Below are positions 9,490-25,872 of a stretch of 64,000 nucleotides of DNA, in pieces. Source of the stretch: Novacetimonas maltaceti (GTDB lineage Bacteria > Pseudomonadota > Alphaproteobacteria > Acetobacterales > Acetobacteraceae); contig NZ_POTC01000006.1 in the NCBI RefSeq assembly GCF_002906255.1, positions 45,302 through 109,301 of the forward strand, written 5' to 3'. The translations under genes and the position numbers were made by a program. Numbering within the stretch: position 1 is the first letter of the stretch; each line of letters opens with the position of its first letter. The notes beneath the pieces were generated by a model. The model was not told the DNA's origin, did not search any database, and saw only the letters and a list, made by a program, of their open reading frames with translations.

Positions 9490-9660
9490 TTCCCTGCCCC
9501 CCACCTGGCGCGTGCGCCAGCGCAGGGAGGGGATCGGGATCGACTTCATCGACAATGGCATGGATTCTGGTGGTCAGTCCGCCACGGGATCGGCCGATGG
9601 CCTGATCCGCGCCCTTTTTTTATCCGCTCCCACCAGCCATCGCCCTGGCCATAGCGTCGC
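9490..9660 (-). pseudogene. IS5-type transposase remnant
   Basis: On the minus strand one frame reads GRSRGGLTTRIHAIVDE, which matches the conserved GRSRGG(L/F)TTKIH block around the first catalytic region of IS5-family DDE transposases. An adjacent frame carries RRYGQGDGWWERIKKG, like the block just before it. The two pieces are in different frames with a short A-run between them. Start, end and the other catalytic residues are missing. It is a broken fragment, about 80 bases beyond the last gene of the WXG/FtsK operon. Confidence 0.65.
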
Positions 9661-9739: not shown

Positions 9740-10198
9740 TTAACAGACGTACGGCGGGGTCTGGGCGGCGGCATGCGTCGCCTGCGCGTCACATTCGCGG
9801 CCGTAGGATTCCGCGCGGGAGATTTCCATATGCACATCCGGCAGGCGCGCCATCAGCGTGCTGCCGGTATGGTCGATACTGTCCATGGTGCGCCCGGCGT
9901 AACAGGACTGCGCCCATGCTTCCATCAGGGCGGTGCCTGCCATGTCATTCTCTGTGGCAAGGTCCGTCAGGTCCGTCCCGATCGCCTCGCGCGCCTCCGT
10001 GGTGGGCCTGATGTTCCGTTCCATGACCGAACGCCCCGCCGCGTCAAGCCACAGGGCGGCAAGGGATTCGACCTCATTGCGCCACGACAGCAACATCTCG
10101 TGCAGTTCCTCAAGGCGTTCGTGCGCGTCACGCGCATGGCCGTGAAGGACCTCCAGGCTGGAGGTCGGCGTTACGTTATCGCGGTCGATGCTGAACAT
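9740..10198 (-). CDS. Hypothetical helical protein, last gene of the T7SS-like operon
   Basis: A 152-residue, mostly helical, acidic protein with no signal peptide or membrane segment. Residues 20-80 contain LLSWRNEVESLAALWLDAAGRSVMERN written here in two parts: LLSWRNEVESLAALW, then LDAAGRSVMERN. The W-x-x-A-x-G spacing resembles the turn of WXG100 proteins, so it may be a third, longer WXG-like member. A strong GAGGAGG ribosome site precedes the ATG. It lies 18 bases after the 332-residue gene and is probably co-transcribed from 22 kb. No function is recognised; secreted substrate or chaperone are options. Confidence 0.7.
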   Translation of the reverse strand: MFSIDRDNVTPTSSLEVLHGHARDAHERLEELHEMLLSWRNEVESLAALWLDAAGRSVMERNIRPTTEAREAIGTDLTDLATENDMAGTALMEAWAQSCYAGRTMDSIDHTGSTLMARLPDVHMEISRAESYGRECDAQATHAAAQTPPYVC

Positions 10199-10216
10199 CG
10201 TCGGGCCTCCTCGACC

Positions 10217-11215
10217 TTACAGGGTTCGGGTGTCAAATTTCTGCATCAGCGCCGCCTTGTCCATCAGGCGGTCATCCGCGCGCGTCGCGTCGTGCGCATT
10301 GTCCCCGGCGCGGGCGCGGATGCTGTGGAACTGCTCCGTGCCGATATCGACATGATTGCGCCCGACCTGGGCCTGACGGGCGCAGGCATCGGCATGTTCG
10401 CGCATCACGTCAAGCAGGCGGTCCATTTCCTGCACCAGGGGATAGATGTCCCTGGCGGTGCGTATGACGTCATTCGCGCTCGCCACGGCCTGGCGCCCGA
10501 CACGGACGGCATGCCCCGCAATAGAGACCGCGTGAATCCCCCGATTGCGGCAGTCGGTGCAGATGTTTTCACGCGCCTGCGCATGGCCCAGCGCCTGATG
10601 CGCGCCGTTCAGTGCGCATTCGGCGCCGAACACCTCGGTCTGGGCATGTTCCAGTTGGGATTGCGCGGCATATACCGCATTGGCATAGGACGCGCAGTTG
10701 GGATAGACGATGTGTCCCTGGTTATCATAGCTGACATCCGCCTCACAACTCGCCAGAGCGGACTGCGCGCTCGACAGCGCGGACTGGGCGCTCCCCGCCC
10801 GGTTCTGCGCCATCATCAACCGCCCCGATGCGGCGGAGACAGCGGCCTGCGCGTTGGTGCGCTCGATGATGGCCATGCTCAGTTGGCCTTCCCAGTGGTG
10901 CAGCACGCTATTGGCCTCGCATTCCACCTGCCTGGCGCGCGCCTCTCGACTGCTGGCGGCGCTGTGGGCGGACTGCGCCGCCGCATGGACGGCGTCCAGT
11001 TCGCTGCGCCAGTACTGCACGCGCTGCATCGCCTCATGCAGGGCCTCGCCCGTGGCCTGCGCGCGCGCGATGGCGTCCGACGCCTCCTCCATCAGCAGGG
11101 CCTGCACGGTGCCAAAGACCGCCACGGCATCGACCAGCGCGCGCTGCGGGTCGTAATGACGGTCTTTCGTCTCCTCCATCAGGCCGACCACGGCAGCCGG
11201 TTCGATCATGTCCAT
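10217..11215 (-). CDS. Long helical (coiled-coil) protein of the T7SS-like operon
   Basis: A 332-residue alanine- and glutamine-rich protein predicted to be almost entirely helical, with coiled-coil stretches (for example SAQSALSSAQSALASCEAD). It has no signal peptide or transmembrane segment. Several cysteines lie in the middle, including CASY and an ICTDCRNRG motif. It sits 8 bases after a WXG100-like gene. Its length and helical build resemble the WXG/LXG-type helical stalk of secreted effectors or a PPE/Esp-like substrate, but no toxin domain is visible. An alternative start two codons in (second Met) is possible. Confidence 0.72.
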   Translation of the reverse strand: MDMIEPAAVVGLMEETKDRHYDPQRALVDAVAVFGTVQALLMEEASDAIARAQATGEALHEAMQRVQYWRSELDAVHAAAQSAHSAASSREARARQVECEANSVLHHWEGQLSMAIIERTNAQAAVSAASGRLMMAQNRAGSAQSALSSAQSALASCEADVSYDNQGHIVYPNCASYANAVYAAQSQLEHAQTEVFGAECALNGAHQALGHAQARENICTDCRNRGIHAVSIAGHAVRVGRQAVASANDVIRTARDIYPLVQEMDRLLDVMREHADACARQAQVGRNHVDIGTEQFHSIRARAGDNAHDATRADDRLMDKAALMQKFDTRTL

Positions 11216-11223
11216 GGCAGGAA

Positions 11224-11505
11224 TCAGATCCCGGCGCCCGCCGTGTCAAGGCGCGTGAGCACTTCGATACGGACCTGCAGCGCCTTCTGGATCGCGTCCA
11301 TCGCCTCGTTACATTCACGCATCTTCAGGACGCTGGCGTTGAACATGTCGGCGAACTGCTCCGCCGCCTGCCCGGAATAGACGGTGGCGAACATGGTCCA
11401 GCTCTGCTCCAGCTGCTCGAAGGCCGCCTGGATGGCCTCACGGCTGCGCAGCAGCGCCGCGTCGTAATCGTTGAGAACGCCAATCAGGGCTGTCGTGTCG
11501 ATCAT
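11224..11505 (-). CDS. WXG100-like small helical protein
   Basis: A 93-residue protein predicted as two helices joined by a turn. The turn region SWTMFATVYSGQAAEQFADM matches the WXG100 layout: Trp, then a Gly-x-Ala-x-x-x-Phe pattern about nine residues on. The Trp and Gly are spaced further apart than in classical ESAT-6 proteins. It overlaps the upstream partner gene by 4 bases (ATGA), as esxA/esxB-type pairs often do. In ESX systems such proteins are secreted as dimers by an FtsK/SpoIIIE ATPase, and an ATPase of this type is encoded just upstream. Family assignment is by size, pattern and context, not by search. Confidence 0.65.
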   Translation of the reverse strand: MIDTTALIGVLNDYDAALLRSREAIQAAFEQLEQSWTMFATVYSGQAAEQFADMFNASVLKMRECNEAMDAIQKALQVRIEVLTRLDTAGAGI

Positions 11506-11783
11506 TGTCCGGCCTCCATGTATTCCTCAAGGATCGCAAGCTTCTCCGCGATGAACTCACGATAGGCGGGCGCGTCCTGCGTGCTCCACAGGTTCAGCGC
11601 CTCGCTCAGTTCCTGCCACGAGGCATTGTAGCGCATCGAACTCTGGTCATTGTCCCATGCGGCCATCGCCTCGTCATGGAAGCGTGTCAGCTCCACGAGC
11701 GTACTGGACAGTACGTCGCTGAACTCCTCCAGGCTCCTGTTGAACTGCTGCATCTGTTCGAATGTCTCATCAAGCGATGACAT
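11502..11783 (-). CDS. WXG100-like small helical protein (partner)
   Basis: A 93-residue acidic helical-hairpin protein. The central FHDEAMAAWDNDQSSMRY has the helix-W-x-N/D-turn-helix form seen in many divergent WXG100 proteins outside actinobacteria. The ATG at 11783 is preferred over an upstream TTG because GGGAGAGC precedes it at good spacing. It overlaps the following gene by 4 bases, suggesting paired translation and possibly a heterodimer. It lies 74 bases after the FtsK/SpoIIIE-type ATPase gene. It is likely either the secreted substrate or a structural adaptor of that machine. Confidence 0.65.
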   Translation of the reverse strand: MSSLDETFEQMQQFNRSLEEFSDVLSSTLVELTRFHDEAMAAWDNDQSSMRYNASWQELSEALNLWSTQDAPAYREFIAEKLAILEEYMEAGQ

Positions 11784-11857
11784 CGTCCGCTCTCCCAAGC
11801 AAAGTATGGTCCACGATTCCCGGCGCAGGTGTCCTGCGTGCCGCCATCAGTCCGCGC

Positions 11858-14800
11858 TCATTCCCCGAACAGGGTCACCAGCGACCTTTCCTGCGACGGC
11901 CCCATCAGGTTTACCGTCGTCACGTTTTCTTCCGCGTCGTCGCGGCTGCGGCTGGTCGGGGTGCTGACCCCCACCCCGCGCGCAAGCTCACGCGTCAGGA
12001 TGTCGAACACGATCCAGTGGAACGTCTCCCCAAGCGCGTTCGCCCGCGCCTGGAACACCTTGCCCACCTCCGCCATCGTATTGCACAGCATGATCGTGTG
12101 CTGCCCCGTCTCCGGCCCCTTGCCCAGCCGCTTCGACAGCGCGTTGCCCGCGCTGCGCGCGGCCAGCGTGTCCGGGACCCGCAGGTCCGGCGCCTGGTCG
12201 GGACCGATCAGCAGCAGCACGTCGGCGCTGCCGTCCGGGGCGCGGGCCTCCAGGAAGTCCTTTGCGTCGGCGGCATTTTCCGACACCACCCAGTGCGCGG
12301 GCATCGGCCGCCCGGTCAGGGCGATGGCAGCGTCGATCACCCCACGGAAGGTATCGGCATACAGCGCGGTATTGAGGATGCGCACCGATCCCACCACCGA
12401 AGGCGCCAGCGAGGCGAGCGAGACGATGATCCCGGCCAGCAGCTTGCCCTGCAGGTCGCTGTCCTTGACCACCGACAGCAGGTTTTCCCCATCCCCGCGC
12501 CACAGCACCGCGCTGGCCTGCCCATGCAGGGAGGTGTCGCGTCCCAGCAGCAGCGGCACGGGATGGATCTGCGCATCGAGCCGGACGGGGAAAAGGCCCT
12601 TCTCCTCCGGCCGCTGCGCGGCCAGCGCCTCGAGCGCCGCAGCGTCGAGCGGCGCGCCCGTGGCCTGCATGCGCTGCAGCAGGAAGTTGCCCGACAGCGT
12701 CGGCAGCGTCAGCCCGTCGATCACCTCCAGCCGCGGCCAGTGCGCCTTCTGCGCGTCGGTCCGGCGGCGGGCCAGTTCGTCGAATTTCGCAAACAGCGGC
12801 GCCAGCCGCGCATTGTCGTCCTGCGATGCGCCGGGGGCGTTGATCTCCGCATCGCTCCGGCCATCGAGCAGGTCCACATGCCCGACGACGTTGCCATCCT
12901 TGCCGCCGTCGCTGTTGACCAGGATGTCACCGCGTTCACGGACCATGCTGCGCAGCAGGGCCTTGCCCTCGCGGTTGAATTCCTCCAGCCCCTCGATCGC
13001 ATCCCCCGACAGTTTCATCGACATGCGCAGCGCGATGTTGCTGAAGATGTTCCGGCCCTGCGTCATGCCGGGCGCCTTCATGCTCTGCGATGACAGCAGG
13101 ATGTGGATGCCCGCCGAACGCCCCTTGGCGACCAGGTTCTGGATCACCTTGGAAATCTTCGGCGCCTGGTCGGCGTTGCGGAACATGACCTGGTATTCGT
13201 CGATCACGATCAGGAGGCGCGGCGCGGGGCCACGGGGCTGGCCCGCATTGTGATAGGCGGTGATGTTCTTGAACTGCCCGTGCCCGTCGTCATTGTCACG
13301 GAACAGCTTGATGTTGCGCCGGGTCATCTCCGCATCGAGGTTCTCCAGCAGCGAGCCGACATACGGCAGCGCCGTGCTGGTCGCGATGACCGCCGTGTGC
13401 GGCATCTGCCGGTAGATGTTGAACTCCGTCCCGTCCTTGAGGTCCACGAGGTAGAACTGCAGTTCATCGGGGGAATAGCGCATCGCAAGGCCAAAGATCA
13501 GCACTTCGAGCATCTTCGACTTGCCGCTGCCGGTCTGCCCCGCCAGCACGCCCGCCGTGACGATGCGGCACAGGCCATCGGGTTCCTCCCCGAACAGGAC
13601 GCTCGGGCCGTCGGGCGTGTTCGTCAGGGGGGTCTGGATGAAATGCACCGCCCTGTGGGTCCACCATTTGCTCACGGGCGGGATCACGGCGAAACTGCTG
13701 CCCTTCACCGGGCGGGCCAGCGATTGCAGGATCCGCGTATGCAGCGGCGCGGGCGGCAGGCGGTCCACCGCGATGCCGGCCCCCGTCGCGGCCCCCGCCG
13801 CAAGGGTGCGCAGGTCGATGACATGCGCGCCCTTGCGGACGTCATCGAACCCCTGCGGCAGCTTCTCGACGCCGTCGCCGCGCGCGCCGAACTGGTGCGC
13901 AGGCGGCGTGACATTGACATGCGCGACAAGGTAGCGCCCCACCGGCGGGCCGTTGAGGGCGATCTCGCGCAGCTTCGCGGACAGGGCGTCATATTTCGGG
14001 TCGCCCACGTCCAGCGCGCAGACCACCTCGTATCCCCCCGCAAGCTTCTGCTCCTCGCGGGTCCAGGAATGGAAGTCGGGACGCCCCTGCAGCATCGTGC
14101 GCGTCGCATCCACCAGGTCGTTGCAGATCGTCGCCAGCGCATTGGCCGGCTGCGCGGAATCGACCGGGCGGCATGACGGCAGGTATGTCTGCTGCGCGAA
14201 CGCACGGCCAAGCCCCACCGGGTCAAGCAGGCTGAAGCGCACGTCATCGGTCATCATGCACGCAAGGCGCAGCACCAGCACGCGCACCAGTTCATGGGCC
14301 ATGTCCTTCGTGCTGTCATCGGACAGGATCAGCCACGATTTCTGCCCCGCGATCAGCGGCAGGTACGCAATGGCGCCCGACGGGCCACGTTCCCTGCCCC
14401 AGCGCAGCAGGAAACCGTCATCGCCGTTGCGCGTCAGGCCCGCGGGCCTGCCACTGCGGCGCCAGCGCAGCCATTGCGGCGCCCATTCGGCCCGCAGCCC
14501 CGCGCAGTCATCGGCAGTGAAGGACGCGTTGAGGTGGAAATGATCCGGCGCGAACATCGCCTCGCGCACGGTTGCGCCCGCGTCACCGACGATGTGCGCG
14601 CACAGCGCGACCGACGGCGCGCTGTCCGTGCCGCCGCCCTGCGCCACCAGCCGGTCATGTTCCGCCCGCCACGCCGCGTTGCATGCCTCCTGCCCTTCCA
14701 CCGCGATGGCGCGCAGCAGCGCGTGCGGCGGCCTGCTGCCGGGGGGGGCGGACCTCGGCGGCGGCGCGACCTCGGGGGCCGCTTCGGGCGTGGGTTCGGG

Positions 14801-14863
14801 CGCGGGTTCGGGTGTTGCGGCAGGCGTGGGAACCATGCTCAGGAGGTCTTCAATGGACTTCAT
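11858..14863 (-). CDS. FtsK/SpoIIIE-family ATPase, EssC/EccC-like
   Basis: A 1,001-residue soluble motor ATPase. Residues 1-60 are a Pro/Ala/Glu-rich linker, and there is no transmembrane helix. The first ATPase domain is canonical: Walker A GQTGSGKS at residues 442-449, then FYLVDLKDGTEF, and Walker B LLIVIDEY with Asp555-Glu556. VAKGRSAGIHILLSSQ follows, as in FtsK/SpoIIIE proteins. A second domain after about residue 740 keeps the fold pattern, but the P-loop is degenerate (KDSDLQGKL near 800) and Walker B reads VLLLIGPDQ near 887. Tandem domains with degenerate copies recall EssC/EccC of type VII secretion. The Sel1 gene precedes it and WXG100-like genes follow. A DNA translocase role is less likely. 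Confidence 0.85.
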   Translation of the reverse strand: MKSIEDLLSMVPTPAATPEPAPEPTPEAAPEVAPPPRSAPPGSRPPHALLRAIAVEGQEACNAAWRAEHDRLVAQGGGTDSAPSVALCAHIVGDAGATVREAMFAPDHFHLNASFTADDCAGLRAEWAPQWLRWRRSGRPAGLTRNGDDGFLLRWGRERGPSGAIAYLPLIAGQKSWLILSDDSTKDMAHELVRVLVLRLACMMTDDVRFSLLDPVGLGRAFAQQTYLPSCRPVDSAQPANALATICNDLVDATRTMLQGRPDFHSWTREEQKLAGGYEVVCALDVGDPKYDALSAKLREIALNGPPVGRYLVAHVNVTPPAHQFGARGDGVEKLPQGFDDVRKGAHVIDLRTLAAGAATGAGIAVDRLPPAPLHTRILQSLARPVKGSSFAVIPPVSKWWTHRAVHFIQTPLTNTPDGPSVLFGEEPDGLCRIVTAGVLAGQTGSGKSKMLEVLIFGLAMRYSPDELQFYLVDLKDGTEFNIYRQMPHTAVIATSTALPYVGSLLENLDAEMTRRNIKLFRDNDDGHGQFKNITAYHNAGQPRGPAPRLLIVIDEYQVMFRNADQAPKISKVIQNLVAKGRSAGIHILLSSQSMKAPGMTQGRNIFSNIALRMSMKLSGDAIEGLEEFNREGKALLRSMVRERGDILVNSDGGKDGNVVGHVDLLDGRSDAEINAPGASQDDNARLAPLFAKFDELARRRTDAQKAHWPRLEVIDGLTLPTLSGNFLLQRMQATGAPLDAAALEALAAQRPEEKGLFPVRLDAQIHPVPLLLGRDTSLHGQASAVLWRGDGENLLSVVKDSDLQGKLLAGIIVSLASLAPSVVGSVRILNTALYADTFRGVIDAAIALTGRPMPAHWVVSENAADAKDFLEARAPDGSADVLLLIGPDQAPDLRVPDTLAARSAGNALSKRLGKGPETGQHTIMLCNTMAEVGKVFQARANALGETFHWIVFDILTRELARGVGVSTPTSRSRDDAEENVTTVNLMGPSQERSLVTLFGE

Positions 14864-14940
14864 GGTTCTTCAGATCCTTTGCTGCCGGGAATACGGGTGC
14901 GATGATCGCGCGGCATGCACGCGCCTTGGGATGGCATGCA

Positions 14941-17900
14941 TCATGAAATGGTCTCCAGCACCTTCACCGAAGGCATCAGGATACGGCAGAAGCAGGTCTC
15001 CTTGTCCTTGCCCATGTGCTGCGCCATCCATGCGCTGGTGCACGGCAGGATATGCGCAAGCCGCATCTGGTCCACAGCCTTGCCCCTGAGGATAGGGAGG
15101 ACGAGGGGAACATTCGTGTCCGGGTTCACGACATCCAGCTTCACCGGCAGCGCTCTGATGCTCTGGCCCAGATCGGGGATCGTTTTCCTGAAAGCGACAG
15201 TGTCCACGTCCTCGCTCATCAGTCCGTTGAGGAACGGGACATACCTGTTCATGTCGGGAAGCGCTTTCGTGGCGGCCTTCAGCAGGTCAAAACCGTGCTT
15301 CTCGTTACGGAAAAAGAGAGCGCGGTGCTGGTAGAGGTAGTACATCCCTTCGCCGAACAGGCCCCAGCCGACCTTCTTTTTCGCCAACTGTTCGAAAATC
15401 TTCAGGGCCGTGGTCTCGCTTTGCGAAACACCGATGCCAAGGGCATGGCAGTAGGCCAGACGCAACAGCGCCCATTCACTACCGCTGTCCGCGGCACGCC
15501 TGGTCCATTTGAACATCCTGTCCGGGTCGGCGCACGGGTTTTCGGTATGGGCGGAATAGACGTACGACAGGATCAGCATCGACCCATGATCGCCCTTCTC
15601 CGCCAACTGCTCGTACTGCTCGAGCGCAATCCGGCGGTAACGCCCCTCCGCCAGCGAACCGGCGCCGAGATACGCGCGCAGGTACACCCGCAACTGGGGA
15701 TCTTCCCCGGCGGCAATGGCACGTTCGTAATACTGTGCCGCCTGCAGGTAGTAGGCCTTGACCATGTCCGTGGCGGCAGGGTTGCCATCATATGTCCGCC
15801 CTGCCGCAGCGCGGAAGAAATCCCCCACGAACGCCAGAGGCGTCAACAACTCTTTCGTGTTGATGCAGCGTTCGGCGCGCTCCGGATCCTGCATGTAACC
15901 GACGCACCGGTTGAACGGTACGTCGCCGACGGCAGGGTCATTCATCCAGCACAGCATCAGTCCCAGCACGGCCCGGGCATCGTACTTCCCCTCACCCGTC
16001 GGCGTCAGGACGTCGCCATACCATTTGCTGGCCTTGACATAGTTCTTGCGGTTCCGTTCGGTGTCGCCAAGCAGGATTTGCACATCCGGATGATCCGCCA
16101 CGCCGGGTTCGGTGAGCATCGCCACACCGCCATCGACATCAAGGGGGCAGAACTTCCCGTCAATCATCAGCTTGCCGTACAGACGCTTTGCGTTCACGCT
16201 CCCCTTGGCCACCCCCTGCCGGAGCAGGTCGATCGCACGGGTCTTGTCGGGCGCGCCGGGCACGACATTGCTCAGCGCAAGCGACGCCAGCAACCCCATG
16301 GCATCGGCATTTCCCAGTTCCACGGCCTTTTCCAGCCATGAAATCGCGTCGGGCCATTCCTGCCTGCCCACACGGAATTTGCCCAGTTCATACATCGCCC
16401 GCGCGCTGTCCGGAACCTTCGCCTCCGCCGCCTGCGTAAACAGTGCGACGGCACGCTCGCGCACCGTGGGGTCCGTTTCCTGCACATACAGGCAGCCAGC
16501 CGCGATCATGGCCTCGACGCTGCCCATTTCGACCGCCTTCAGGTACCACTCCAGGGCCTCGGGGGTATCGTGCGCCACACCGTTGCCATCGCGCAGGCTG
16601 TCGGCATAGCGCACCATCGACTGCCGGTTCCCCCCCCGCGCCGCCATGGCATCGAAATGGGCCGCCTTGCGCGGATCCGGCGCGAACGGAATTTTCCCCT
16701 CCACGCGCCCCCGTCTGATGGAGCGCCAGCTATACAGGCAGCCCAGCGTGTTCATTGCATCCACGGAGCCCAGTTTGACCGCCTGCTCCAGCAGGCGCAG
16801 CCCTTCGTCCACCTCGGGCTTCAGCACGTCCTTCACGCCAATGACGCAGCACATGCCAAGGTAGCTCATGACCTTAGGGTCATCCCCGGAGGCGGCAGCC
16901 AGCTTGAGCCAGCGGATCGCCTCTGCAAGGCTGACGTCCGACGTATTCTCGAAAACCTGCAGCCCCAGCTTCTTCTGCGCGGCGCAATCGCCCAGTCCGG
17001 CTGCCTCCCGACATGCGGCAAGGGCCGCCGCATCATCCTTCGGCCCCCCGATCCCCTGTTCGAAACACCGGACCAGCAGGACAAAGGCCGCGCGCCGCTC
17101 GACCGGGTCGAGGGAACTTCGCTCTGCCGTCGCCTGCTTCAGCAGCGCCACCGCGCGCGCGGCCTCGGCCGGGGCGGGGCTGTCGCCATCAAGGATCTGC
17201 TTCGCCGCCTGATACGCATACGAGAAGTTCCCAAGCTCGACCGCCCGGTTCTCCCACCTGCGCAGGTCGTTCGTGTCGGAGTCGTGGCGGCAGAGTTCGA
17301 TCAGCTTCTGCACGGCCTTCAGCGCCAGCGCGTCCGTGCTCTGCGCGACGCGCATCAGCCACTTCTTCGCCTTGTCGCGGGTGGCGGGATCGGGCGGCAG
17401 CATGGCGGCATACGTCATCCCCGCGCCGAACATGCCCTGCATATTCCGCCTGTTTCCCGCCTTTTCATACCAGGCGGCGCTGGCGGCGAAGTCGGGGCTC
17501 AGCCGGGCGGCGTGCAGCATGGCCTCCACATTGCCCGCGGTCCCCGCCTTTTCATACCATTTCAGCGCATCCGCCTTGTCCGGGCTCAGCCGGGCGGCAT
17601 TCATCATGCCGTCGACGTCGCCCGCGGCCCCCGCCTTTTCATACCATTTCAGCGCATCCGCCTTGTCCGGGCTCAGCCGGGCGGCGGCCATCATGCCGTC
17701 GACGTTGCCCGCGGCCCCCGCCTTCCCGTACCAGTCCAGGGCCCCGGAGAGGCTGACCTCAACCCCTTTGCCTTCCTCAAGGAAGCAGCCGTAATTGAAC
17801 ATGCCCTCGCCAGAGCCCTTCTGCGCCGCCATGAGATAGTATTCGGCCGCGGCCTTCAGGTCGGTGGCAAACGGGCTTTGGCCCTCCAGTTCCTCGAAGG

Positions 17901-20900
17901 TGACTGTCTTTTTCTCATAAAGCTCGCCAAGCACCAGCATCGCATCATCGTCGCCAAGCTGGCATGCCTCATTGAGCAGCCGCTCCCCTTTCCTCAGGTC
18001 GACCTTGAGGTCCCGGCGCGGGCCGACCAGGTAGCACCAGCCCAGTACGGTCATGAGGGAGGAGTCCTTCTTTTCGGCCCCTTTCATCAGCCACGACAGC
18101 GCCTCGTCCGCCGGAAGGCCATAGCTTGGAAACGCATACAGGACGCCCATCTTGCGGGCGCAATCCCCGTTGCCAAGTTCCGCCCCGGCGCGCAAGTAAT
18201 CGATCCCGGCGCCATAGTCGCAATCGCTGTCCCCGTACAAGCCTAACGCCGACGAGGCCAGCAGATCCAGCGCCGCGCCACGCTGTGCATTGTTGGCCCC
18301 ACTGTCCTTTGCCACGACCTTCTTCAGCAGCGACATCGCGCGCGCGCGCATGGTGGCGGAAGGAGCCCGTTTCCCAAGGAGGTTGCGCGCGACCGCCACG
18401 CCGGTGTCCACGTCGCCCAGCGCGAAGGCGCGGTCTTGCCACCGGTACCGTTCGGTCGGGTCGGGATCGCGCGCATGGACCCGCATCAGGGCACGCGAGG
18501 CCTGCAGCGCGAAACTGCTGTCGCCCAGGGCGACCTTCTGCAGCAGCGCGATTCCGCGGCTGCGGTCGGCAGGGGATGCCCCTTCGACGCAGTAAAGCTG
18601 CCCCGCGCCCAGTTCGCCTTCGGCATTCCCCTTGGCCGCGGCCCGGTTGTAGAATTCCAGCGACCGTGCCTCATCCCCACACAGCCGTGCCACGCCCAGC
18701 ATGCCAAGGACCTCGCCCCCGTTGGCGGCCTTTTCATACCATTGCAGGGCGGCATCGCGGTTCTGCGCGACGCCCGCGCCTTCGGCCAGGCAGTCGGCAT
18801 AGCGCGCCATCGCGAACATCCGGACCCAGGCTTCGCGCGGCGGCACATTGTCCTGCCCCGCCGCGCGGGCATACAGTTCGGCCGCCTTGTCCATCTTCAC
18901 CGCAAGCGGGCTGTGCCCACTGACGGTCCCACATGAGAATTCACCATCGGACGCATACAGATCGGCCAGCGTCACCATGGCGGGGACATGGTTGAACTTG
19001 GTCGCCGCCGTGTTCAGCAGGCCCGTTCCCCTGGCCACGTCGACGACAACCGCCCCACCCACGCCAAGGATATAGCAGACCCCCAGGCGGCCCATGCAGT
19101 CGGGGACCTGCGCGTCGGCGCCTTTCTTCAGCCACTCCAGCGCCTCCGCCGGCGGGAGGCTGCTGTCTTTCTTGAAATAGCGTTCGCCCAGCCACCGCAG
19201 GGCATCGGGATCGCCCAGTCCGGCGGCGCGCACGCGCAGGGCAAGGCCCGCCTCGACACCGGCCTCGACGCTGTGCGGATCCTCGTCATCGTCAGCGATC
19301 GTGCCACCGGCCGCGTTGTCCGCGCATCGCGCCAGCAGGTTGAACGCCGCGCCACGCAGCGCATCGTCCGCGCCACTTCCGTCCGCCGCGACCTTCTTCA
19401 GCAACGCCTGCGCACGTGCGCGGCGCGCGGCGTCGGGGGCCGGGGCGACGGCCAGGGCGTCGATGATCTGCCGCGCCACGTCAAAGGCGACCTGCAGGTC
19501 GCCAAGTTCGATCGCCCGGTCTTGCCAGAACTGCAGTTCGGCCGGGTTGCTGGACGCGCGATACAGTTCCATCAGTTCATGCGTGGCCGGCAGCGCGTTC
19601 GCCCCCCCGCCCTGCGCGACCTGCATGAACAGCGCGATGCCCCTGGCGCGGTCCGCCGCACCCGACGACGGGTCGCAACAGATCCGCCCCGCGCCCAGCA
19701 TGCCGTCAAGGTTGCCCTTGGCCGCGGCCTTTTCATACCATTGCAGGGCGGCGGGCACGTCACGTTCGCATCCCATGCCATCGCGCAGGCAGTCGGCATG
19801 GCGCACCATCGCGATCACGTCGCCCTTTGCCGCGCCCATGGCATAGGCGGCGGCGGCCTTGTCCATGTCCACTGCCGGGGGGCTGTCGCCACGCACGGCG
19901 CCAAGCGCGACCCGCTTCGTGGCATGCAGGTCGCCCAGCAGCCGCATCGCATAGCCCGAATCCAGCTTCGCCGCCTCGTCCAGCAGCATCAGCCCCGTGC
20001 GGATGTCGCGCGACACCTTCCCGGCCATGCCGATGACCTCGCAGAAGCCGAGGTTGGCCATGCTGACGGGGTTCTTCAGGTCGGCGGATTTACGCAGCCA
20101 CTCCAGCGCCTCCGCCTGCGGGACGGCCCTGTCGCGGATGAAATACGCCTCCCCCAGCCAGAAGATGGCATCGACATTGCCCAGTTCGGCCGCGCTCACG
20201 CGGCGGGCGGCTTCCTGCGCGGGATCGGCGCTGCCGCCCTGTTCGTCATATTTGACCTGCAGGTTCAGCGCCATGCCGCGCTGCGCATCGGTTGCGCCGC
20301 TGCCTTTTGCCGTGACCTGCTCCAGCAGGGCCATGCCGCGCGCGCGCTGCGCCGCACCGGCCGCGGGCGTGTCAAGGATCCGCTGCGCCGCGTCGAGCGC
20401 GACCTGAATGTCCCCCAGTTCGATCGCCCGGTCTTCCCACCGGTACAGTTCGGCCGGGTCGGCATCGTGCACATGAAGCCCGATCAGCTCACACGCCGCC
20501 ACGCGGGCGTTAGCATCGGTGCCCCACGCCACCTGCCGCAGCAGGTCGATCCCCTTCGCCCGGTCCGCCACGCCCGATTTCGGGTCGCAGTACATCTGCC
20601 CCGCGCCGAGCATGCCGTCGAGGTCGCCCGCCGCCGCGGCCTTTTCATACCAGCGCAGGGCCTCGGCGGTGTCCTGCGCAACACCCGCGCCATCGCGCAG
20701 GCAGCGGGCGTGGCGCACCATCGCGCCGACATCGCCGTGTTCCGCCGCCATGCGGTAATACTGGTCCGCCTTCGCCATATCCACCGCAAGCGGGCTTTCG
20801 CCACGCACGGCGCCAAGGGCGGCATCCGCCGACGCATACAGGTTGCCCAGCGTCACCATCGCAAGGACGCTGCCGGCCTGCGCCGCCTTCTCCAGCAGGG

Positions 20901-22071
20901 CCACGCCCTGCGCCACGTCGCCCGCAAGGCCGACGACACAGCAGAAGCCAAGCCGCGCCATGCTGGCGCCATCCCCGGCATCGGCGGCCCTGCGCAGCCA
21001 CTCCAGCGCCTCTTCACGCGGGATCGGCCCGTTCGCATCCATGCAGGTCGCGCCCAGCGCCGCCATGGCCCCGACACCGCCAAGGCGCGCCGCCTCCCGC
21101 CGCCAGTGCATCGCGCGCGCGGCATCGCGCGCGGTGCCCACGCCATCGCGGCAGCATTCCATCAGGCGGGTGGCCGCCCATTCGCGATTGAGCGGCGTGC
21201 CGCCGGGGGCCGCGACCGCGCGTTCCAGCAGGGGCACGGCGTAGGCCGGACTGCCCCCGCGCCCGGCCAGCATGTCCGCCGCGACAAGCAGCATCGACAG
21301 CACGTCGCCCCCATCGGCGGCCTGCGCCAGCGCGATGCGTCCTTCCTGCCGGGTGGCTTCGGTCGCGCCCGGACCCGCCAGCAGGCGGCGGGCATGCGCG
21401 CCGATGGCGGCGGTATCGCCGTGCCCGATCGCCAGTTGCAGCCAGGCGTCCAGTTCCGGCAGGGGCGGCACGGCGGGCAGCAGGGCAGAGGCACGCGCAT
21501 CCATGTCCGGCGGCACAAGGCCGGCATATCCCCCAAGGTCCGCCAGCCACGCGGCGGCGCCGGCGATGCCCTCCCCCGCCGCGCGCCGCATCCAGTCGAT
21601 CGCGTCGGCGGTGGGGGGATTGGCCATCACGGACTCAACGATACCGGACAGTCCCCCGTCCACGCCCACATGCACGACATCGAAATAGGCAGCCAGCGCA
21701 CCGTCCACCTGCGGCGGGGCCCACAGGCGCGCGATGTCGAAGACCGACGTGCTTTCCTCGTCATCATCGACGACGGCCTCGCCATAATACTTCAGGGCCT
21801 GTTCGTACCCCTGCGCCAGCATGGTGTCGTCCGCTGCGGGATCGTGGCCACCCAGCGCATACCAGTCGCCCAGGGCGACATAGCCTTCGGGCGCGCCATC
21901 GCGCACGGCGGCGGCGCAGCGCGCGCCACGGGCAAGGCGGTAGGCCTGCATGTCAGTCGGGTCGGTCACCCCCAGCAGCGCGGCGGAGCGGACCTGGGTC
22001 ATCCGGACCGCCAGCGGGACATCATCGGTGCCTGTCTGAGGGTCCTGCTGTGGAATATCGACGACTGACAT
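14941..22071 (-). CDS. Giant Sel1-repeat solenoid protein
   Basis: A protein of about 2,377 residues composed almost wholly of Sel1-like (SLR) alpha-alpha repeats. Typical units read WYEKAAAAGDLDGMLGAGQ and AMVRHARCLRDGAGVAQDT. No signal peptide or membrane segment is seen. Repeats are organised in larger blocks of about 300-395 residues, each containing a RWEDRAIELGD-like segment. SLR solenoids scaffold protein complexes. It is the first gene of the leftward operon, so it may organise the secretion ATPase and substrates. ATG at 22071 is chosen over a GTG 15 bases upstream because ACGGGG lies before it; neither site is strong. Length is far above usual SLR proteins. Confidence 0.85.
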   Translation of the reverse strand: MSVVDIPQQDPQTGTDDVPLAVRMTQVRSAALLGVTDPTDMQAYRLARGARCAAAVRDGAPEGYVALGDWYALGGHDPAADDTMLAQGYEQALKYYGEAVVDDDEESTSVFDIARLWAPPQVDGALAAYFDVVHVGVDGGLSGIVESVMANPPTADAIDWMRRAAGEGIAGAAAWLADLGGYAGLVPPDMDARASALLPAVPPLPELDAWLQLAIGHGDTAAIGAHARRLLAGPGATEATRQEGRIALAQAADGGDVLSMLLVAADMLAGRGGSPAYAVPLLERAVAAPGGTPLNREWAATRLMECCRDGVGTARDAARAMHWRREAARLGGVGAMAALGATCMDANGPIPREEALEWLRRAADAGDGASMARLGFCCVVGLAGDVAQGVALLEKAAQAGSVLAMVTLGNLYASADAALGAVRGESPLAVDMAKADQYYRMAAEHGDVGAMVRHARCLRDGAGVAQDTAEALRWYEKAAAAGDLDGMLGAGQMYCDPKSGVADRAKGIDLLRQVAWGTDANARVAACELIGLHVHDADPAELYRWEDRAIELGDIQVALDAAQRILDTPAAGAAQRARGMALLEQVTAKGSGATDAQRGMALNLQVKYDEQGGSADPAQEAARRVSAAELGNVDAIFWLGEAYFIRDRAVPQAEALEWLRKSADLKNPVSMANLGFCEVIGMAGKVSRDIRTGLMLLDEAAKLDSGYAMRLLGDLHATKRVALGAVRGDSPPAVDMDKAAAAYAMGAAKGDVIAMVRHADCLRDGMGCERDVPAALQWYEKAAAKGNLDGMLGAGRICCDPSSGAADRARGIALFMQVAQGGGANALPATHELMELYRASSNPAELQFWQDRAIELGDLQVAFDVARQIIDALAVAPAPDAARRARAQALLKKVAADGSGADDALRGAAFNLLARCADNAAGGTIADDDEDPHSVEAGVEAGLALRVRAAGLGDPDALRWLGERYFKKDSSLPPAEALEWLKKGADAQVPDCMGRLGVCYILGVGGAVVVDVARGTGLLNTAATKFNHVPAMVTLADLYASDGEFSCGTVSGHSPLAVKMDKAAELYARAAGQDNVPPREAWVRMFAMARYADCLAEGAGVAQNRDAALQWYEKAANGGEVLGMLGVARLCGDEARSLEFYNRAAAKGNAEGELGAGQLYCVEGASPADRSRGIALLQKVALGDSSFALQASRALMRVHARDPDPTERYRWQDRAFALGDVDTGVAVARNLLGKRAPSATMRARAMSLLKKVVAKDSGANNAQRGAALDLLASSALGLYGDSDCDYGAGIDYLRAGAELGNGDCARKMGVLYAFPSYGLPADEALSWLMKGAEKKDSSLMTVLGWCYLVGPRRDLKVDLRKGERLLNEACQLGDDDAMLVLGELYEKKTVTFEELEGQSPFATDLKAAAEYYLMAAQKGSGEGMFNYGCFLEEGKGVEVSLSGALDWYGKAGAAGNVDGMMAAARLSPDKADALKWYEKAGAAGDVDGMMNAARLSPDKADALKWYEKAGTAGNVEAMLHAARLSPDFAASAAWYEKAGNRRNMQGMFGAGMTYAAMLPPDPATRDKAKKWLMRVAQSTDALALKAVQKLIELCRHDSDTNDLRRWENRAVELGNFSYAYQAAKQILDGDSPAPAEAARAVALLKQATAERSSLDPVERRAAFVLLVRCFEQGIGGPKDDAAALAACREAAGLGDCAAQKKLGLQVFENTSDVSLAEAIRWLKLAAASGDDPKVMSYLGMCCVIGVKDVLKPEVDEGLRLLEQAVKLGSVDAMNTLGCLYSWRSIRRGRVEGKIPFAPDPRKAAHFDAMAARGGNRQSMVRYADSLRDGNGVAHDTPEALEWYLKAVEMGSVEAMIAAGCLYVQETDPTVRERAVALFTQAAEAKVPDSARAMYELGKFRVGRQEWPDAISWLEKAVELGNADAMGLLASLALSNVVPGAPDKTRAIDLLRQGVAKGSVNAKRLYGKLMIDGKFCPLDVDGGVAMLTEPGVADHPDVQILLGDTERNRKNYVKASKWYGDVLTPTGEGKYDARAVLGLMLCWMNDPAVGDVPFNRCVGYMQDPERAERCINTKELLTPLAFVGDFFRAAAGRTYDGNPAATDMVKAYYLQAAQYYERAIAAGEDPQLRVYLRAYLGAGSLAEGRYRRIALEQYEQLAEKGDHGSMLILSYVYSAHTENPCADPDRMFKWTRRAADSGSEWALLRLAYCHALGIGVSQSETTALKIFEQLAKKKVGWGLFGEGMYYLYQHRALFFRNEKHGFDLLKAATKALPDMNRYVPFLNGLMSEDVDTVAFRKTIPDLGQSIRALPVKLDVVNPDTNVPLVLPILRGKAVDQMRLAHILPCTSAWMAQHMGKDKETCFCRILMPSVKVLETIS

Positions 22072-22334
22072 ATATGCCCCGTACACTTTTTTTGACCAAG
22101 CGCGTTATAGCAGGGTGACAAGTTACACGTCGATACGATATTTGAAATAAATAGACCGGGTAGACACGGCGGACAAAATGACCCGCTGCGGGCGAAGACG
22201 TGCGCCCGCGCGTGCATGCTGCAACAATTCCGTCATGATTACAGGAACACGCATTAAATATGACCTTCCGCGCAATTCCCATTACTTCACCCTGCGTGCC
22301 CGATCCTTTGCCAGAGGGGCGCAGGCGGGGCCGG
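22072..22334. promoter_or_regulatory. Divergent promoter region of the T7SS-like locus
   Basis: A 263-base spacer between the leftward Sel1/FtsK/WXG operon and the rightward exported/membrane protein pair. It is more AT-rich than its surroundings (for example around 22085-22160). A TATAAC-like -10 for the leftward operon lies at about 22106-22111, but no convincing -35 is seen. No operator or riboswitch was recognised. The divergent layout implies shared control of both gene sets. Confidence 0.4.
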
Positions 22335-23144
22335 ATGTTCCGCCATGTCGCGCACATGCGCCATGGCCGGGGCCTGATGCTTGCGGCGGCATGCGCGGCC
22401 ATGGGCCTGCACGCGCCCGCCCATCCGGCCCACGCGCAGGGGGCATACACCACGCGTGAGACGTTTTTATACCAGAACGATACCATCGCGCTCCAGACCG
22501 ACGCGCAGGGAAACGATTACGTCACGGTCATGGAAAAAGGCATGTCGTCCGCGCTGAAGATGCACGATGCGCATATCGTGCAGGTCTTTGACCTGCCGGA
22601 CGAAACCGTGGCCGTCATGCGCGGGCGCAGCGATGCGTGCGCCACGGGATACGCGACGGTTTCGCTGTGGGACGGGCATAACATGCGGATCGACAGCCTG
22701 CCCGCGCCCTGCGCCGAATATGGCGTCGGCAACATGGACCGCAACATGATCGCCTTTCGCGGCATGGGGCAGGACGACACGCTCTACCTTTACATGCAGC
22801 ACAGGTTCATGGAATCCAGCGCCCGCGACATGCCCGCCACGGGGCAGGACGGGATGCAGTACACGCACGTCACGCGCGCCGATGACTCTGCGGTCGAAAA
22901 CCCCGACGACCCGTTCTCCCCCCTCAGCCAGCAGTGGGTGGACAACCCGGCGGCGTACCGACCGGCACATGCCGTACCGGACGCCACGCAGGCCGCCCCG
23001 GCCCATGACACGCCGCCCGTACGCCATGTGACGCATCATCGCCGCAGCATGGCGGTCCCGCACATGGAAAAGATCCCCACCAGTATCCCGCGGGCGGATG
23101 AAACCGATACCTCGCAGCCTGTCAAACTGGACCTGACACAGTGA
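22335..23144 (+). CDS. Exported protein of unknown function beside the T7SS-like operon
   Basis: A 269-residue protein with an N-terminal signal peptide: a basic start (MFRHVAHMRHGRG), a hydrophobic core (LMLAAACAAMGL) and a probable cleavage after AHPAHA. The mature part has a beta-rich region to about residue 170, then a Pro/His-rich tail. The ATG at 22335 is chosen because it places the signal sequence at the N-terminus; an earlier start 75 bases upstream adds an atypical leader. The gene overlaps the following membrane-protein gene as GTGA. It could be a periplasmic part of the secretion machine. No domain is recognised. Confidence 0.65.
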   Translation: MFRHVAHMRHGRGLMLAAACAAMGLHAPAHPAHAQGAYTTRETFLYQNDTIALQTDAQGNDYVTVMEKGMSSALKMHDAHIVQVFDLPDETVAVMRGRSDACATGYATVSLWDGHNMRIDSLPAPCAEYGVGNMDRNMIAFRGMGQDDTLYLYMQHRFMESSARDMPATGQDGMQYTHVTRADDSAVENPDDPFSPLSQQWVDNPAAYRPAHAVPDATQAAPAHDTPPVRHVTHHRRSMAVPHMEKIPTSIPRADETDTSQPVKLDLTQ

Positions 23145-24640
23145 CACTCCTTGATTTCGAGCAGTACAGGGAATCGCGCAACAGACGCGCGTATGTCCCG
23201 CTCATGCTTTTCCTGACCGTAATCTACCTGGCCTTCGAACTGGCGTTCAATGCACGCCTGCTGGATATTACAGGGACTTTCGCAACACGGCACGATGTTG
23301 ACGCGATCGAATTCTATGGCCGCGTCATTTCCGGCCTTGCCCTGACGCTTGCGGTCTGGGGCATGATCCTGCGCCATGCGAATGCGACGTACCAGCCCTC
23401 GCGCACGGTCATCAGCACGCTGTTCTGGGCTGCGGCCCTCCTGTTGCCCGCGACCTATTTCGGCGAGAAGATGCTGCTTGACCGGATCGTGGCGCATTCC
23501 ACGGGCGAACAGCGCCGCGACGCGATGTTCCTGCAATATATCAAGCGCGACATCGTCCGCGGCACGATAGATGCACAGCAGATCACACTTGACGCCGCGG
23601 TCCGCCAGTCGCCGGAGGGCAAGGCCTTCCTGTCGATCCTGCCATTAATGGCCATGTCGGTCGATAATATCGACGAAAAGGCGCAGGAGAAGGTCAAGGA
23701 GGCGATGGCCAGCACCGTCCGCCAGGACATGGGCGGGTCGGACGGCCACGTCTTCAACGAACAGTTCGTCGGCCCGGCGGAACAGATCCGCGCGAAGTTC
23801 AACCGGTATGAAGACCTGGCGGCCGCCTTCGTGCGTTCGGGGCGCACGCGGCATGCGCGCACGGTGTATGAAAACGCCCTGGCCAACGAGATCACGGGCA
23901 CGCGCGACTTCATCCCGCCGGGCCTGAAATTCGACGCCTTCGCCAACCTGCCGCCGTTTGTCGCGACGATGCGCGCGGCGCTGAAGGTGCCCGATGACAT
24001 CCCCATTTCCGCCAGCATGACGGCAGAGCAGTTCGCAGCGCAGGTCCGCGAGCCCATGGTCACGCAGGAGGTGGAGCGGCGGATTGCGGAACTTGACTAC
24101 CAGCCGGAAACATTCCTCGACGGGCAGGAACACGCCACGATCGGCCGCGAGGCGATGGAGGCGGTGATTGCCCCGGCCCTTGCGCTTGTCTTTTCCGTGC
24201 TGGGCGCGCTGGTGCACCTGTACAAGAGCGCGTACTACCTGCTCTACAGCGTGCGCACCCCGACCGCGCTCGCGCATGGGATCGTCAGTTGCCTGCTGGT
24301 GGGCGTCATCATCTTCCTGGTGCGTTCGCCCAATGAGATCACGCGCTCGAAACTGTTCACATCGCTGGAGGAACAGGTCAACAGCGCCAGCCACTGGGGG
24401 ATGGGCCATGTGCTCAACACCTCGGTCCGGTGGATGATCCAGGCACAGCCGCGTTTCTATCCCTTCAATGAGGCGGACCGGCGCATGCTGCACCTGACCT
24501 TTGGCACGCGGGATCTCGATACATCGGAAAAGGCCGCCCCGGCCCCCGCCCTGCGGGACACCGCGACACAGGACACCACAACACAGGACACCACGGCGCA
24601 GGACAGCAACGCGAAGGATGCGGCCCCGCCGTCGCCCTGA
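23141..24640 (+). CDS. Multi-pass membrane protein of the T7SS-like locus
   Basis: A 499-residue integral membrane protein starting with GTG inside the stop of the preceding gene. Hydrophobic helices lie near residues 18-38, 62-79 and 92-106, then a soluble domain of about 230 residues, and two more helices near 342-365 and 380-396. The C-terminal 40 residues are a low-complexity Thr/Gln/Asp tail (repeats of DTTTQ and DTTAQ). The soluble ATPase nearby lacks membrane anchors, so this protein is a candidate inner-membrane channel or anchor for it. No family was recognised. Confidence 0.7.
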   Translation: MTLLDFEQYRESRNRRAYVPLMLFLTVIYLAFELAFNARLLDITGTFATRHDVDAIEFYGRVISGLALTLAVWGMILRHANATYQPSRTVISTLFWAAALLLPATYFGEKMLLDRIVAHSTGEQRRDAMFLQYIKRDIVRGTIDAQQITLDAAVRQSPEGKAFLSILPLMAMSVDNIDEKAQEKVKEAMASTVRQDMGGSDGHVFNEQFVGPAEQIRAKFNRYEDLAAAFVRSGRTRHARTVYENALANEITGTRDFIPPGLKFDAFANLPPFVATMRAALKVPDDIPISASMTAEQFAAQVREPMVTQEVERRIAELDYQPETFLDGQEHATIGREAMEAVIAPALALVFSVLGALVHLYKSAYYLLYSVRTPTALAHGIVSCLLVGVIIFLVRSPNEITRSKLFTSLEEQVNSASHWGMGHVLNTSVRWMIQAQPRFYPFNEADRRMLHLTFGTRDLDTSEKAAPAPALRDTATQDTTTQDTTAQDSNAKDAAPPSP

Positions 24641-24859: not shown

Positions 24860-25402
24860 ATGTCCCCACGCCTTCGACAGATTGCCGTGCTGGCCTGCGG
24901 CATCGCCGCGCTTGGCACCTCCGCCCTGCCTGCCCGCGCCCATGCCGCCGATACGGCCTCCGGCACCCTGATGGGCACGGACGGGACGGCGCGTGGCAAC
25001 GTGCAGGTCACCGCCGCCCCCCATGGCGTGATCCTGCGCATTACGGCGCAGGGGCTGATCCCCGGATGGCACGGCGTGCATTTCCATGAGAAAGGCAGTT
25101 GCGGCGCACCGAAATTCACCAGCGCGGGCGCGCATGTCCACGCCACGACCCCGGTCGTGCATGGCCTGCTGAACGCCAACGCCAATGACGCGGGCGACCT
25201 GCCCAACATCTTCGTCGGGCCGGACGGCAGCGCCACCGTGGAACTGTATTCCACACTCGTCACGCTCAACGGAACGGACGGGCACCCCGGACTGCTCGAC
25301 GCCGATGGCTCCTCGCTTGTCATCCACGCCAACCCCGATGATTACCGCAGCCAGCCCATCGGCGGCGCGGGCGATCGCGTGGCGTGCGCCGTGATCAAAT
25401 AA
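24860..25402 (+). CDS. Cu/Zn superoxide dismutase-family protein, exported
   Basis: A 180-residue periplasmic protein with a signal peptide (LACGIAALGTSALPARAHA). The start is fixed by AAAGGAAATTCC before the ATG at 24860. Copper ligands are visible in GVHFHEKGSC (two His) and VIHANPDDY, the bridging His in SAGAHVHA, and a zinc His in PVVHG. The segment NDAGDLPN corresponds to the family RHxGDLxN block, but the usual zinc-ligand His is Asp. The paired cysteines in GSCG and VACAV fit the conserved disulfide. The enzyme would convert superoxide to peroxide and oxygen. Activity may be altered by the ligand change. Confidence 0.82.
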   Translation: MSPRLRQIAVLACGIAALGTSALPARAHAADTASGTLMGTDGTARGNVQVTAAPHGVILRITAQGLIPGWHGVHFHEKGSCGAPKFTSAGAHVHATTPVVHGLLNANANDAGDLPNIFVGPDGSATVELYSTLVTLNGTDGHPGLLDADGSSLVIHANPDDYRSQPIGGAGDRVACAVIK

Positions 25403-25420
25403 CCCCCCGCGCGAGCACGA

Positions 25421-25705
25421 AACATCCGGGCTCTGCCCGGACCCGGCAGGGAGCGCACTCCCTGCACCCTGATTCGTTTAAAAGTAACGGTTTCCAAAGG
25501 TCCACGACCTTTGGTGGGGGTGCGGGGGCAAAGCCCCTGCGGATGGTTGCCCCCGCCCGACGCCAGTGGCGCATGTGATCTCCGGGCTCTGCCCGGGCCC
25601 GGCAGGGAGCCTGCTCCCTGCACCCTGATTCGTTTAAAAATAACGGTTTCCAAAGGTCCGCGACCTTTGGTGGGGGTGCGGGGGCAAAGCCCCTGCGGGT
25701 GGTCG
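25421..25705 (+). repeat. Palindromic intergenic repeat family A, two tandem copies
   Basis: Two copies of a roughly 120-base element with four consecutive hairpins: CCGGGCTCTGCCCGG, GCAGGGAGCGCGCTCCCTGC (CTGCTCC in the second copy), a CAAAGGT...ACCTTTGG stem, and GGGGGCAAAGCCCC. A spacer reading CCTGATTCGTTTAAAA lies in the middle. It fills the gap between the dismutase and the peroxiredoxin-like gene. Other copies lie at 32619, 48720, 51792, 54677, 58498, 60667 and, partial, at 62521 and 63498. Confidence 0.85.
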
Positions 25706-25872
25706 CGCAAACCACGCTTCCGATACGTAAAACCACATCCAACAAAACACACATGCAACCGTTGTTAATGCGTCCAGAAAAGACGATTTACGTTGTGGTT
25801 TTGTTGACTCCCCATCATTCGTGTGTTTTTATCCCTTCAAGGCAGACAGTCCTGCCGGGAGGGAATAAGGCG

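What the first reader, a model, noticed from the sequence alone, without database searches (positions are those of the whole stretch)
9740..24640. Type VII (ESX)-like secretion locus with Sel1 scaffold in a proteobacterium
Seen: a leftward operon of a giant Sel1-repeat protein, a tandem-domain FtsK/SpoIIIE ATPase, two overlapping WXG100-like genes, and two further helical proteins, plus a divergent pair encoding exported and multi-pass membrane proteins. Known: EssC/EccC-type ATPases plus WXG100 proteins define type VII secretion, mainly of Firmicutes and Actinobacteria. Inference: this is a compact diderm version in which the ATPase is soluble and the membrane part is supplied by the divergent genes.
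Basis: partly seen in the sequence, partly recalled or inferred. Interest (0 to 1): 0.93.

Follow-up and report, generated by a model that had tools for sequence, protein, structure and literature searches.

The report
ESX-like export machine in acetic-acid bacterium
An acetic-acid bacterium with two cell membranes carries an eight-gene cluster built around an ATPase and a hairpin protein of the kinds that drive type VII protein export in Gram-positive bacteria; the same core gene order recurs in Vibrio-family bacteria and on a Deinococcus plasmid, and it is predicted to export a long helical protein, though no export has been shown.

Summary
Window 9740-24640 (genus Novacetimonas, Acetobacteraceae) encodes a leftward run Sel1 giant - FtsK/SpoIIIE ATPase - two overlapping small genes (W1, W2) - 332-aa coiled-coil protein (CC) - 152-aa helical protein (W3), and a divergent exported/multi-pass membrane pair (Lip, Mem). 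The ATPase is EccC-like (NCBIfam EccCa 114.6 bits; Foldseek's top 8 are EccC/EssC) but soluble, with three FtsK-type domains and one P-loop. W2 is modelled as a WXG100-type hairpin turning at Y-S-G. The order ATPase-W1-W2-CC-W3 recurs in 14 of 14 strongly matching Vibrionaceae genomes, Neokomagataea and a Deinococcus plasmid; there a small tail-anchored protein precedes the ATPase where Novacetimonas has Sel1. Lip-Mem is accessory (10 of 14). CC is distantly related to a coiled-coil-nuclease of TerY-P-linked WXG100/FtsK loci, so it probably sits in the cargo slot. Stand-alone diderm loci of this kind were noted in print (2012, 2024): a new variant of a known kind, not a member of T7SSa-j. Export is untested; intracellular defence is the main rival.

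The parts
9740..10198 (-). W3 (P0001, 152 aa): helical protein with a W-x-D motif, possible third hairpin/Lap-like partner
   Evidence: ortholog in N. cocois 28%; weak phmmer hits (best 21.6 bits) to Vibrionaceae 148-aa proteins in the same slot; W-x-D in 8 of 8; no pairwise BLAST support against the Neokomagataea protein
10217..11215 (-). CC (P0002, 332 aa): long coiled-coil protein, proposed cargo/carrier
   Evidence: profile in 7 of 9 genomes searched; hhalign 96.3% to the TerY-P-linked coiled-coil-nuclease pair
11224..11505 (-). W2 (P0003, 93 aa): WXG100-type hairpin protein
   Evidence: Pfam WXG100 27.6 bits; AlphaFold2 pLDDT 88.6, helices 4-42 and 46-90; Foldseek top hit EsxA:EsxB 4lws_A, TM 0.86, E 8e-3
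11371..11379 (-). Y43-S44-G45, the W-x-G-type turn of W2
   Evidence: Y and G invariant in 13 of 13 aligned W2 sequences; lies between the two helices of the model
11502..11783 (-). W1 (P0004 from its ATG, 93 aa): small helical partner overlapping W2 by 4 bases
   Evidence: profile match in the same slot in the 14 strong Vibrionaceae loci, Neokomagataea and others; Pfam WXG100 only 15.7 bits
11858..14863 (-). EccC-like soluble ATPase (P0005, 1001 aa), three FtsK-type domains, only the middle one with Walker motifs
13517..13540 (-). Walker A GQTGSGKS of the ATPase (residues 442-449)
13193..13216 (-). Walker B LLIVIDEY of the ATPase (residues 550-557)
14941..22086 (-). Giant Sel1-repeat protein (P0006, 2381 aa, GTG start), several long internal repeats about 300-400 aa apart; stands upstream of the ATPase, where other genera have a tail-anchored gene
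   Evidence: orthologs 2376 aa in N. hansenii and 1112 aa in N. cocois
22087..22259 (.). Divergent intergenic region between the Sel1 gene and the Lip gene
   Evidence: ORF coordinates
22260..23144 (+). Lip (P0007, 294 aa): exported protein (signal peptide read by eye); its slot holds a GDPD-domain lipoprotein in Vibrionaceae
   Evidence: GDPD in Vibrionaceae; homology to that protein is not shown
23141..24640 (+). Mem (P0008, 499 aa): multi-pass membrane protein, overlaps Lip by 4 bases
   Evidence: 70-81 bits to the 787-799-aa Mem of Vibrionaceae

Best explanation
This locus encodes an EccC-like ATPase, a WXG100-type hairpin protein and their partners, which together likely form a type VII-like machine that exports a long helical cargo protein from a two-membrane bacterium. 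Shown by sequence or model: the three-domain ATPase with one P-loop and no evident transmembrane helix, the W2 hairpin, the recurring order ATPase-W1-W2-CC-W3 in Pseudomonadota and on a Deinococcus plasmid. Inferred: W1 and W2 pair (overlapping genes) and present CC, alone or with W3, to the ATPase hexamer, much as Esx and Lap proteins do for LXG or PPE substrates; CC is the cargo or its carrier, because a related coiled-coil domain bears a nuclease in TerY-P-linked loci. Inferred: the motor is docked on the inner membrane by a tail-anchored protein in most genera seen, and in Novacetimonas by the Sel1 giant bridging to Mem, with Lip-Mem serving the periplasmic side. Not known: the channel, the route over the outer membrane, and any toxic activity; no toxin or immunity gene was recognised in this locus.
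For: EccC affinity: EccCa is the best NCBIfam model and FtsK far behind, for the window protein and two Vibrionaceae relatives; hhalign of the family to EccC-like proteins 99.9% over 695 columns, residues 186-968 (of the 19 reference proteins P0016 was checked and passes the EccCa and EccCb cut-offs); Foldseek ranks 1-8 all EccC/EssC, before FtsK. WXG100. Synteny: 14 of 14 strong Vibrionaceae loci, 6 of them from genomes that supplied no profile seed, Neokomagataea, Deinococcus plasmid, G567 with weak small-gene scores. ATPase clade of 20 rows, support 100/99. Cargo slot: hhalign CC to coiled-coil-nuclease 96.3%, two unrelated coiled-coil controls at about 0.2% or less; a Helicobacter plasmid has WXG100-like - helical+HNH nuclease - SUKH immunity - FtsK. 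A Mem-GDPD fusion in Azospirillum supports Lip and Mem acting together.
Confidence: 0.5

Rival explanations
1. An intracellular defence or stress machine: the ATPase and its hairpin and coiled-coil partners act on nucleic acid or on invading elements inside the cell and export nothing.
Against: PADLOC, run on seven window proteins without Sel1 and three Vibrio ones, gives FtsK-domain cross-hits to the ATPase and one chance-level hit to W1 (E 0.048), no system. No nuclease, helicase or kinase lies in the core of this clade where Pfam was run. EccC/EssC, not HerA, rank first among structures. Tail-anchored, exported and membrane components recur.
Confidence: 0.25
2. A surface- or envelope-building machine: CC and the hairpins are placed in the envelope as structural parts and are not delivered to other cells.
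For: CC here has no recognised C-terminal enzyme domain. The Vibrionaceae Lip carries a GDPD domain, an enzyme class that acts on glycerophosphodiesters.
Against: Lip-Mem is missing from 4 of 14 loci; the related coiled-coil domain carries a nuclease elsewhere (PMC11090510).
Confidence: 0.13
3. A DNA-transfer accessory: the ATPase is a DNA pump and the pair Lip-Mem is a plasmid transfer module.
For: Mem relatives lie on plasmids, some near conjugation genes; a core locus occurs on a plasmid.
Against: No relaxase or coupling protein among the eight proteins or the ten flanking ORFs scanned; EccC models far outscore FtsK and conjugation models; a WXG100-type partner is not known from DNA pumps (general knowledge).
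Confidence: 0.06

Closest known systems
Mobile diderm 'solo WXG + YueA-like ATPase with three HerA/FtsK domains, only the middle one active' (Zhang et al. 2012, PMC3482391, Table 1 footnote; passage read)
   Same: Three FtsK-type domains with one P-loop in the middle, WXG partner, patchy spread
   Different: The footnote lists beta, epsilon and gamma but not alpha proteobacteria; in the passages seen no CC, W3, tail anchor, Sel1 or Lip-Mem is named
EssC-like ATPase/WXG100/coiled-coil-nuclease cassette of TerY-P and Type III-A CoCoNuT loci (PMC11090510; passages)
   Same: Soluble three-domain ATPase active only in the centre, two small hairpin proteins (one without WxG), a coiled-coil protein with a region like CC
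   Different: Here no VWA/PP2C/kinase, no recognised nuclease on CC, different gene order, and a separate ATPase clade
Type VII secretion systems T7SSa-T7SSj (PMC11217815; passages)
   Same: EccC/EssC-family motor plus WXG100-type hairpin; helical cargo with small helical partners
   Different: Motor without evident membrane part, none of the known T7SS membrane parts or ubiquitin-like protein found, no YxxxD/E tail; a two-membrane host
H. pylori HP0062/HP0066 WXG100 secretion cluster (PMC3397514, PMC4978471; passages)
   Same: Diderm WXG-type hairpin with an FtsK/SpoIIIE ATPase; HP0062 (3fx7) is among the W2 fold matches
   Different: The Helicobacter sp. plasmid version read here has a distant ATPase and carries a nuclease and an immunity gene

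Membership tests
Type VII secretion system (T7SSa-j) | EccC/EssC-family FtsK/SpoIIIE ATPase | tested here: met
   NCBIfam equivalog cut-off not reached (114.6 of 509 bits)
Type VII secretion system (T7SSa-j) | The ATPase is membrane-bound (own transmembrane helices) | tested here: not met
   hydropathy only; the single peak at 809-827 lies in a modelled helix-and-strand domain
Type VII secretion system (T7SSa-j) | WXG100 hairpin protein encoded with the ATPase | tested here: met
   W2; borderline
Type VII secretion system (T7SSa-j) | Subtype membrane components (EccB/D/E, EssA/EssB/EsaA) or ubiquitin-like EsaB | tested here: not met
   none among the 8 window proteins or 8 Vibrio proteins by Pfam; a diverged one could be missed, and the rest of the genome was not searched for them
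Type VII secretion system (T7SSa-j) | C-terminal YxxxD/E export signal | tested here: not met
   absent from the last 25 residues of P0001-P0004; among relatives it occurs in 2 of 8 W1, 0 of 9 W2, 3 of 11 CC and 0 of 8 W3 tails, window proteins included
Type VII secretion system (T7SSa-j) | ATPase-dependent export of WXG100 proteins | not testable with these tools
   needs a secretome experiment
Mobile diderm WXG/three-domain ATPase loci (PMC3482391) | Three FtsK/HerA domains, only the middle active | tested here: met
   (activity inferred from motifs)
Mobile diderm WXG/three-domain ATPase loci (PMC3482391) | Stand-alone WXG domain protein alongside | tested here: met
Mobile diderm WXG/three-domain ATPase loci (PMC3482391) | Mobile or patchy distribution | tested here: met
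   4 of 299 Acetobacteraceae, 15 of 247 Vibrionaceae, a Deinococcus plasmid with IS elements
TerY-P/CoCoNuT EssC-like cassette (PMC11090510) | VWA, PP2C and kinase neighbours; nuclease on the coiled-coil protein | tested here: not met
   eight locus proteins and ten flanking ORFs; CC has no Pfam nuclease
WXG100 (PF06013) | Score over the curated cut-off | tested here: inconclusive
   W2 27.6 against 27.3, 26.9 in the six-frame scan; W1 15.7, under it
FtsK / conjugation coupling ATPases | Best match to FtsK or coupling-protein models; relaxase nearby | tested here: not met

The most novel reading that the evidence does not exclude
A distinct class of type VII-like export machine of two-membrane bacteria: a soluble EccC-like motor is docked on the inner membrane by a separate tail-anchored protein, replaced in Novacetimonas by a Sel1 giant, and drives a four-part helical package (W1, W2, CC, W3) outward, with a lipoprotein/membrane pair helping it over the envelope.
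Probability: 0.35. Interest if true: 0.85.

Novelty: new variant of a known kind. Interest (0 to 1): 0.6.

Why it matters
Current accounts place type VII secretion in Gram-positive phyla (PMC11217815), while three papers mention diderm WXG/FtsK loci from sequence (PMC3482391, PMC4978471, PMC11090510) and a review notes the HP0062 structure and its FtsK neighbour (PMC3397514). No test of export by one came up in my ten paper searches (open-licence papers only, seen as listings and passages). This locus gives a part list, a recurring core order and an ATPase clade in culturable hosts, so the question whether two-membrane bacteria export proteins this way can be put to a plain deletion-and-secretome test. 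It also suggests a swap of the membrane-docking part (tail anchor for Sel1 giant).
Full report
What is there. The window holds, on the minus strand and in reading order, a 2381-aa Sel1 protein (14941-22086), a 1001-aa FtsK/SpoIIIE ATPase (11858-14863), W1 (11502-11783, 93 aa from ATG), W2 (11224-11505, 93 aa), CC (10217-11215, 332 aa) and W3 (9740-10198, 152 aa); divergently, Lip (22260-23144) and Mem (23141-24640).

The hairpins. W2 reaches the Pfam WXG100 cut-off narrowly (27.6 against 27.3) and misses it in the six-frame scan (26.9). Its model is confident (pLDDT 88.6): helices 4-42 and 46-90 with Y43-S44-G45 at the turn; Y and G are invariant in 13 of 13 relatives aligned. Foldseek's hits are led by EsxA:EsxB, CFP10-ESAT6 and EsxA, with HP0062 at rank 12; the best E is 8e-3. 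VIA-align warns that hairpins are common. W1 is only weakly WXG100-like and lacks a W-x-[GND] in the Vibrionaceae sequences listed. W3 keeps W-x-D in 8 of 8; HP0062 has W-R-D at its bend (PMC3397514, passage).

Conservation. In N. cocois all eight genes keep order and orientation. A scan of genome contigs gave 25 loci from 155 matching stretches. Profiles then found the ATPase (E <= 1e-40) in 4 of 299 Acetobacteraceae, 4 of 398 Pseudomonadota, the window genome included, and 15 of 247 Vibrionaceae. Of the 15, 14 score above 1200 bits and all 14 have tail-anchored gene - ATPase - W1 - W2 - CC - W3 on one strand; 10 of 14 add Lip - Mem. Six of the 14 are genomes not among the loci. The fifteenth (G830, 212 bits) is of the TerY-P type. 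Neokomagataea has ATPase - W1 - W2 - CC - W3 and, upstream, a 130-aa frame ending in a hydrophobic stretch. A Deinococcus actinosclerus plasmid has a 142-aa gene with a hydrophobic end and the whole core, W3 weakly. Two metagenome bins have ATPase - W1 - W2 - CC. The upstream protein has its most hydrophobic stretch within 21 residues of its end in 12 of 12 checked; in Neokomagataea, Deinococcus and G567 it was picked by position, not matched by profile. In the ATPase tree, 20 rows form one clade (100/99), apart from EccC, TerY-P-linked, planctomycete and cyanobacterial ATPases; all core loci put into the tree fall in it, P0012 in it has no neighbourhood read, and L075 is a long branch.

Sel1, Lip and Mem. 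Sel1 was met only in Novacetimonas, upstream of the ATPase where others have the tail anchor; lengths are 2381, 2376 and 1112 aa. Lip-Mem is a module: relatives of Mem with an exported or lipobox-bearing gene upstream (read by eye) lie on plasmids of Acetobacter, Salmonella and Aeromonas without ATPase or W genes by profile in the 15-18 kb read on each side. In Vibrionaceae the Lip slot holds a GDPD lipoprotein (4 of 4 scanned), and in Azospirillum Mem and GDPD are one protein. The window's Lip has no GDPD match.

What moves. CC matches the N-terminal part of a 436/443-aa protein of the Caballeronia plasmid and G830 at 96.3% in hhalign, with two unrelated coiled-coil controls at about 0.2% or less. 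Against 2000 block-shuffled sequences the Vibrionaceae protein stands clear (37.4 bits against a best of 23.8) and the Caballeronia one barely (25.3). Pfam finds no domain in either; the printed account of such loci describes a coiled coil fused to a D-ExK restriction-endonuclease-like domain and suggests defensive secretion (PMC11090510, passages). A Helicobacter plasmid has WXG100-like - helical part with HNH nuclease - SUKH immunity - a 77-aa gene - FtsK, but no detectable CC link. CC therefore probably sits in the cargo slot; in this clade it bears no recognised enzyme where scanned.

Known or new. Stand-alone diderm WXG loci with a three-domain ATPase active only in the middle are noted in a table footnote of PMC3482391 and recalled in PMC11090510; H. 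pylori versions are in PMC4978471. T7SSa-j are described from Gram-positive bacteria with a membrane-bound motor (PMC11217815, passages). The locus fails that and other features, so I do not file it there; it works like one by inference. The core part list, the tail anchor, the Sel1 swap and an alphaproteobacterial host were not met in the listings and passages of my searches.

Verdict. A real, conserved system; a new variant of a known kind whose export I found no test of. Export is likely but unproven (0.5); intracellular defence is the chief rival (0.25).

Noticed in passing
window 25410-25710: A dispersed intergenic repeat: DNA search with the right flank gave 56 matches in the window's genome and 50 in G001, most of those listed to this stretch.
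   Followed up: no
window about 9545-9595, minus strand: Next to the end of W3 a short broken frame reads like an IS5-type transposase remnant (motif recalled, translation).
   Followed up: partly
window 24860-25402: A Cu/Zn superoxide dismutase gene (Pfam Sod_Cu) follows Mem; matching DNA follows Mem in N. cocois and N. hansenii too.
   Followed up: partly
L090 4869-18932 and L093 5829-19264: TerY-P-like WXG100/FtsK clusters with VWA, Card1-like nuclease, PP2C and kinase genes in a Vibrionaceae genome and on a Caballeronia plasmid, the latter with a scanned helicase.
   Followed up: partly
L091 5134-9536: Helicobacter sp. plasmid with WXG100-like gene, helical protein with an HNH nuclease end, SUKH immunity gene, a 77-aa gene and FtsK ATPase in a row.
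   Followed up: partly
L052 14992-17907: Azospirillum protein fusing Mem to a GDPD domain.
   Followed up: no
L046 17111-19314, L047 17199-19296, L049 14144-16650, L050 14192-16626: Plasmid-borne pairs of an exported/lipobox gene and a Mem relative without the ATPase nearby; in both Acetobacter plasmids one gene away from a site-specific integrase gene.
   Followed up: partly
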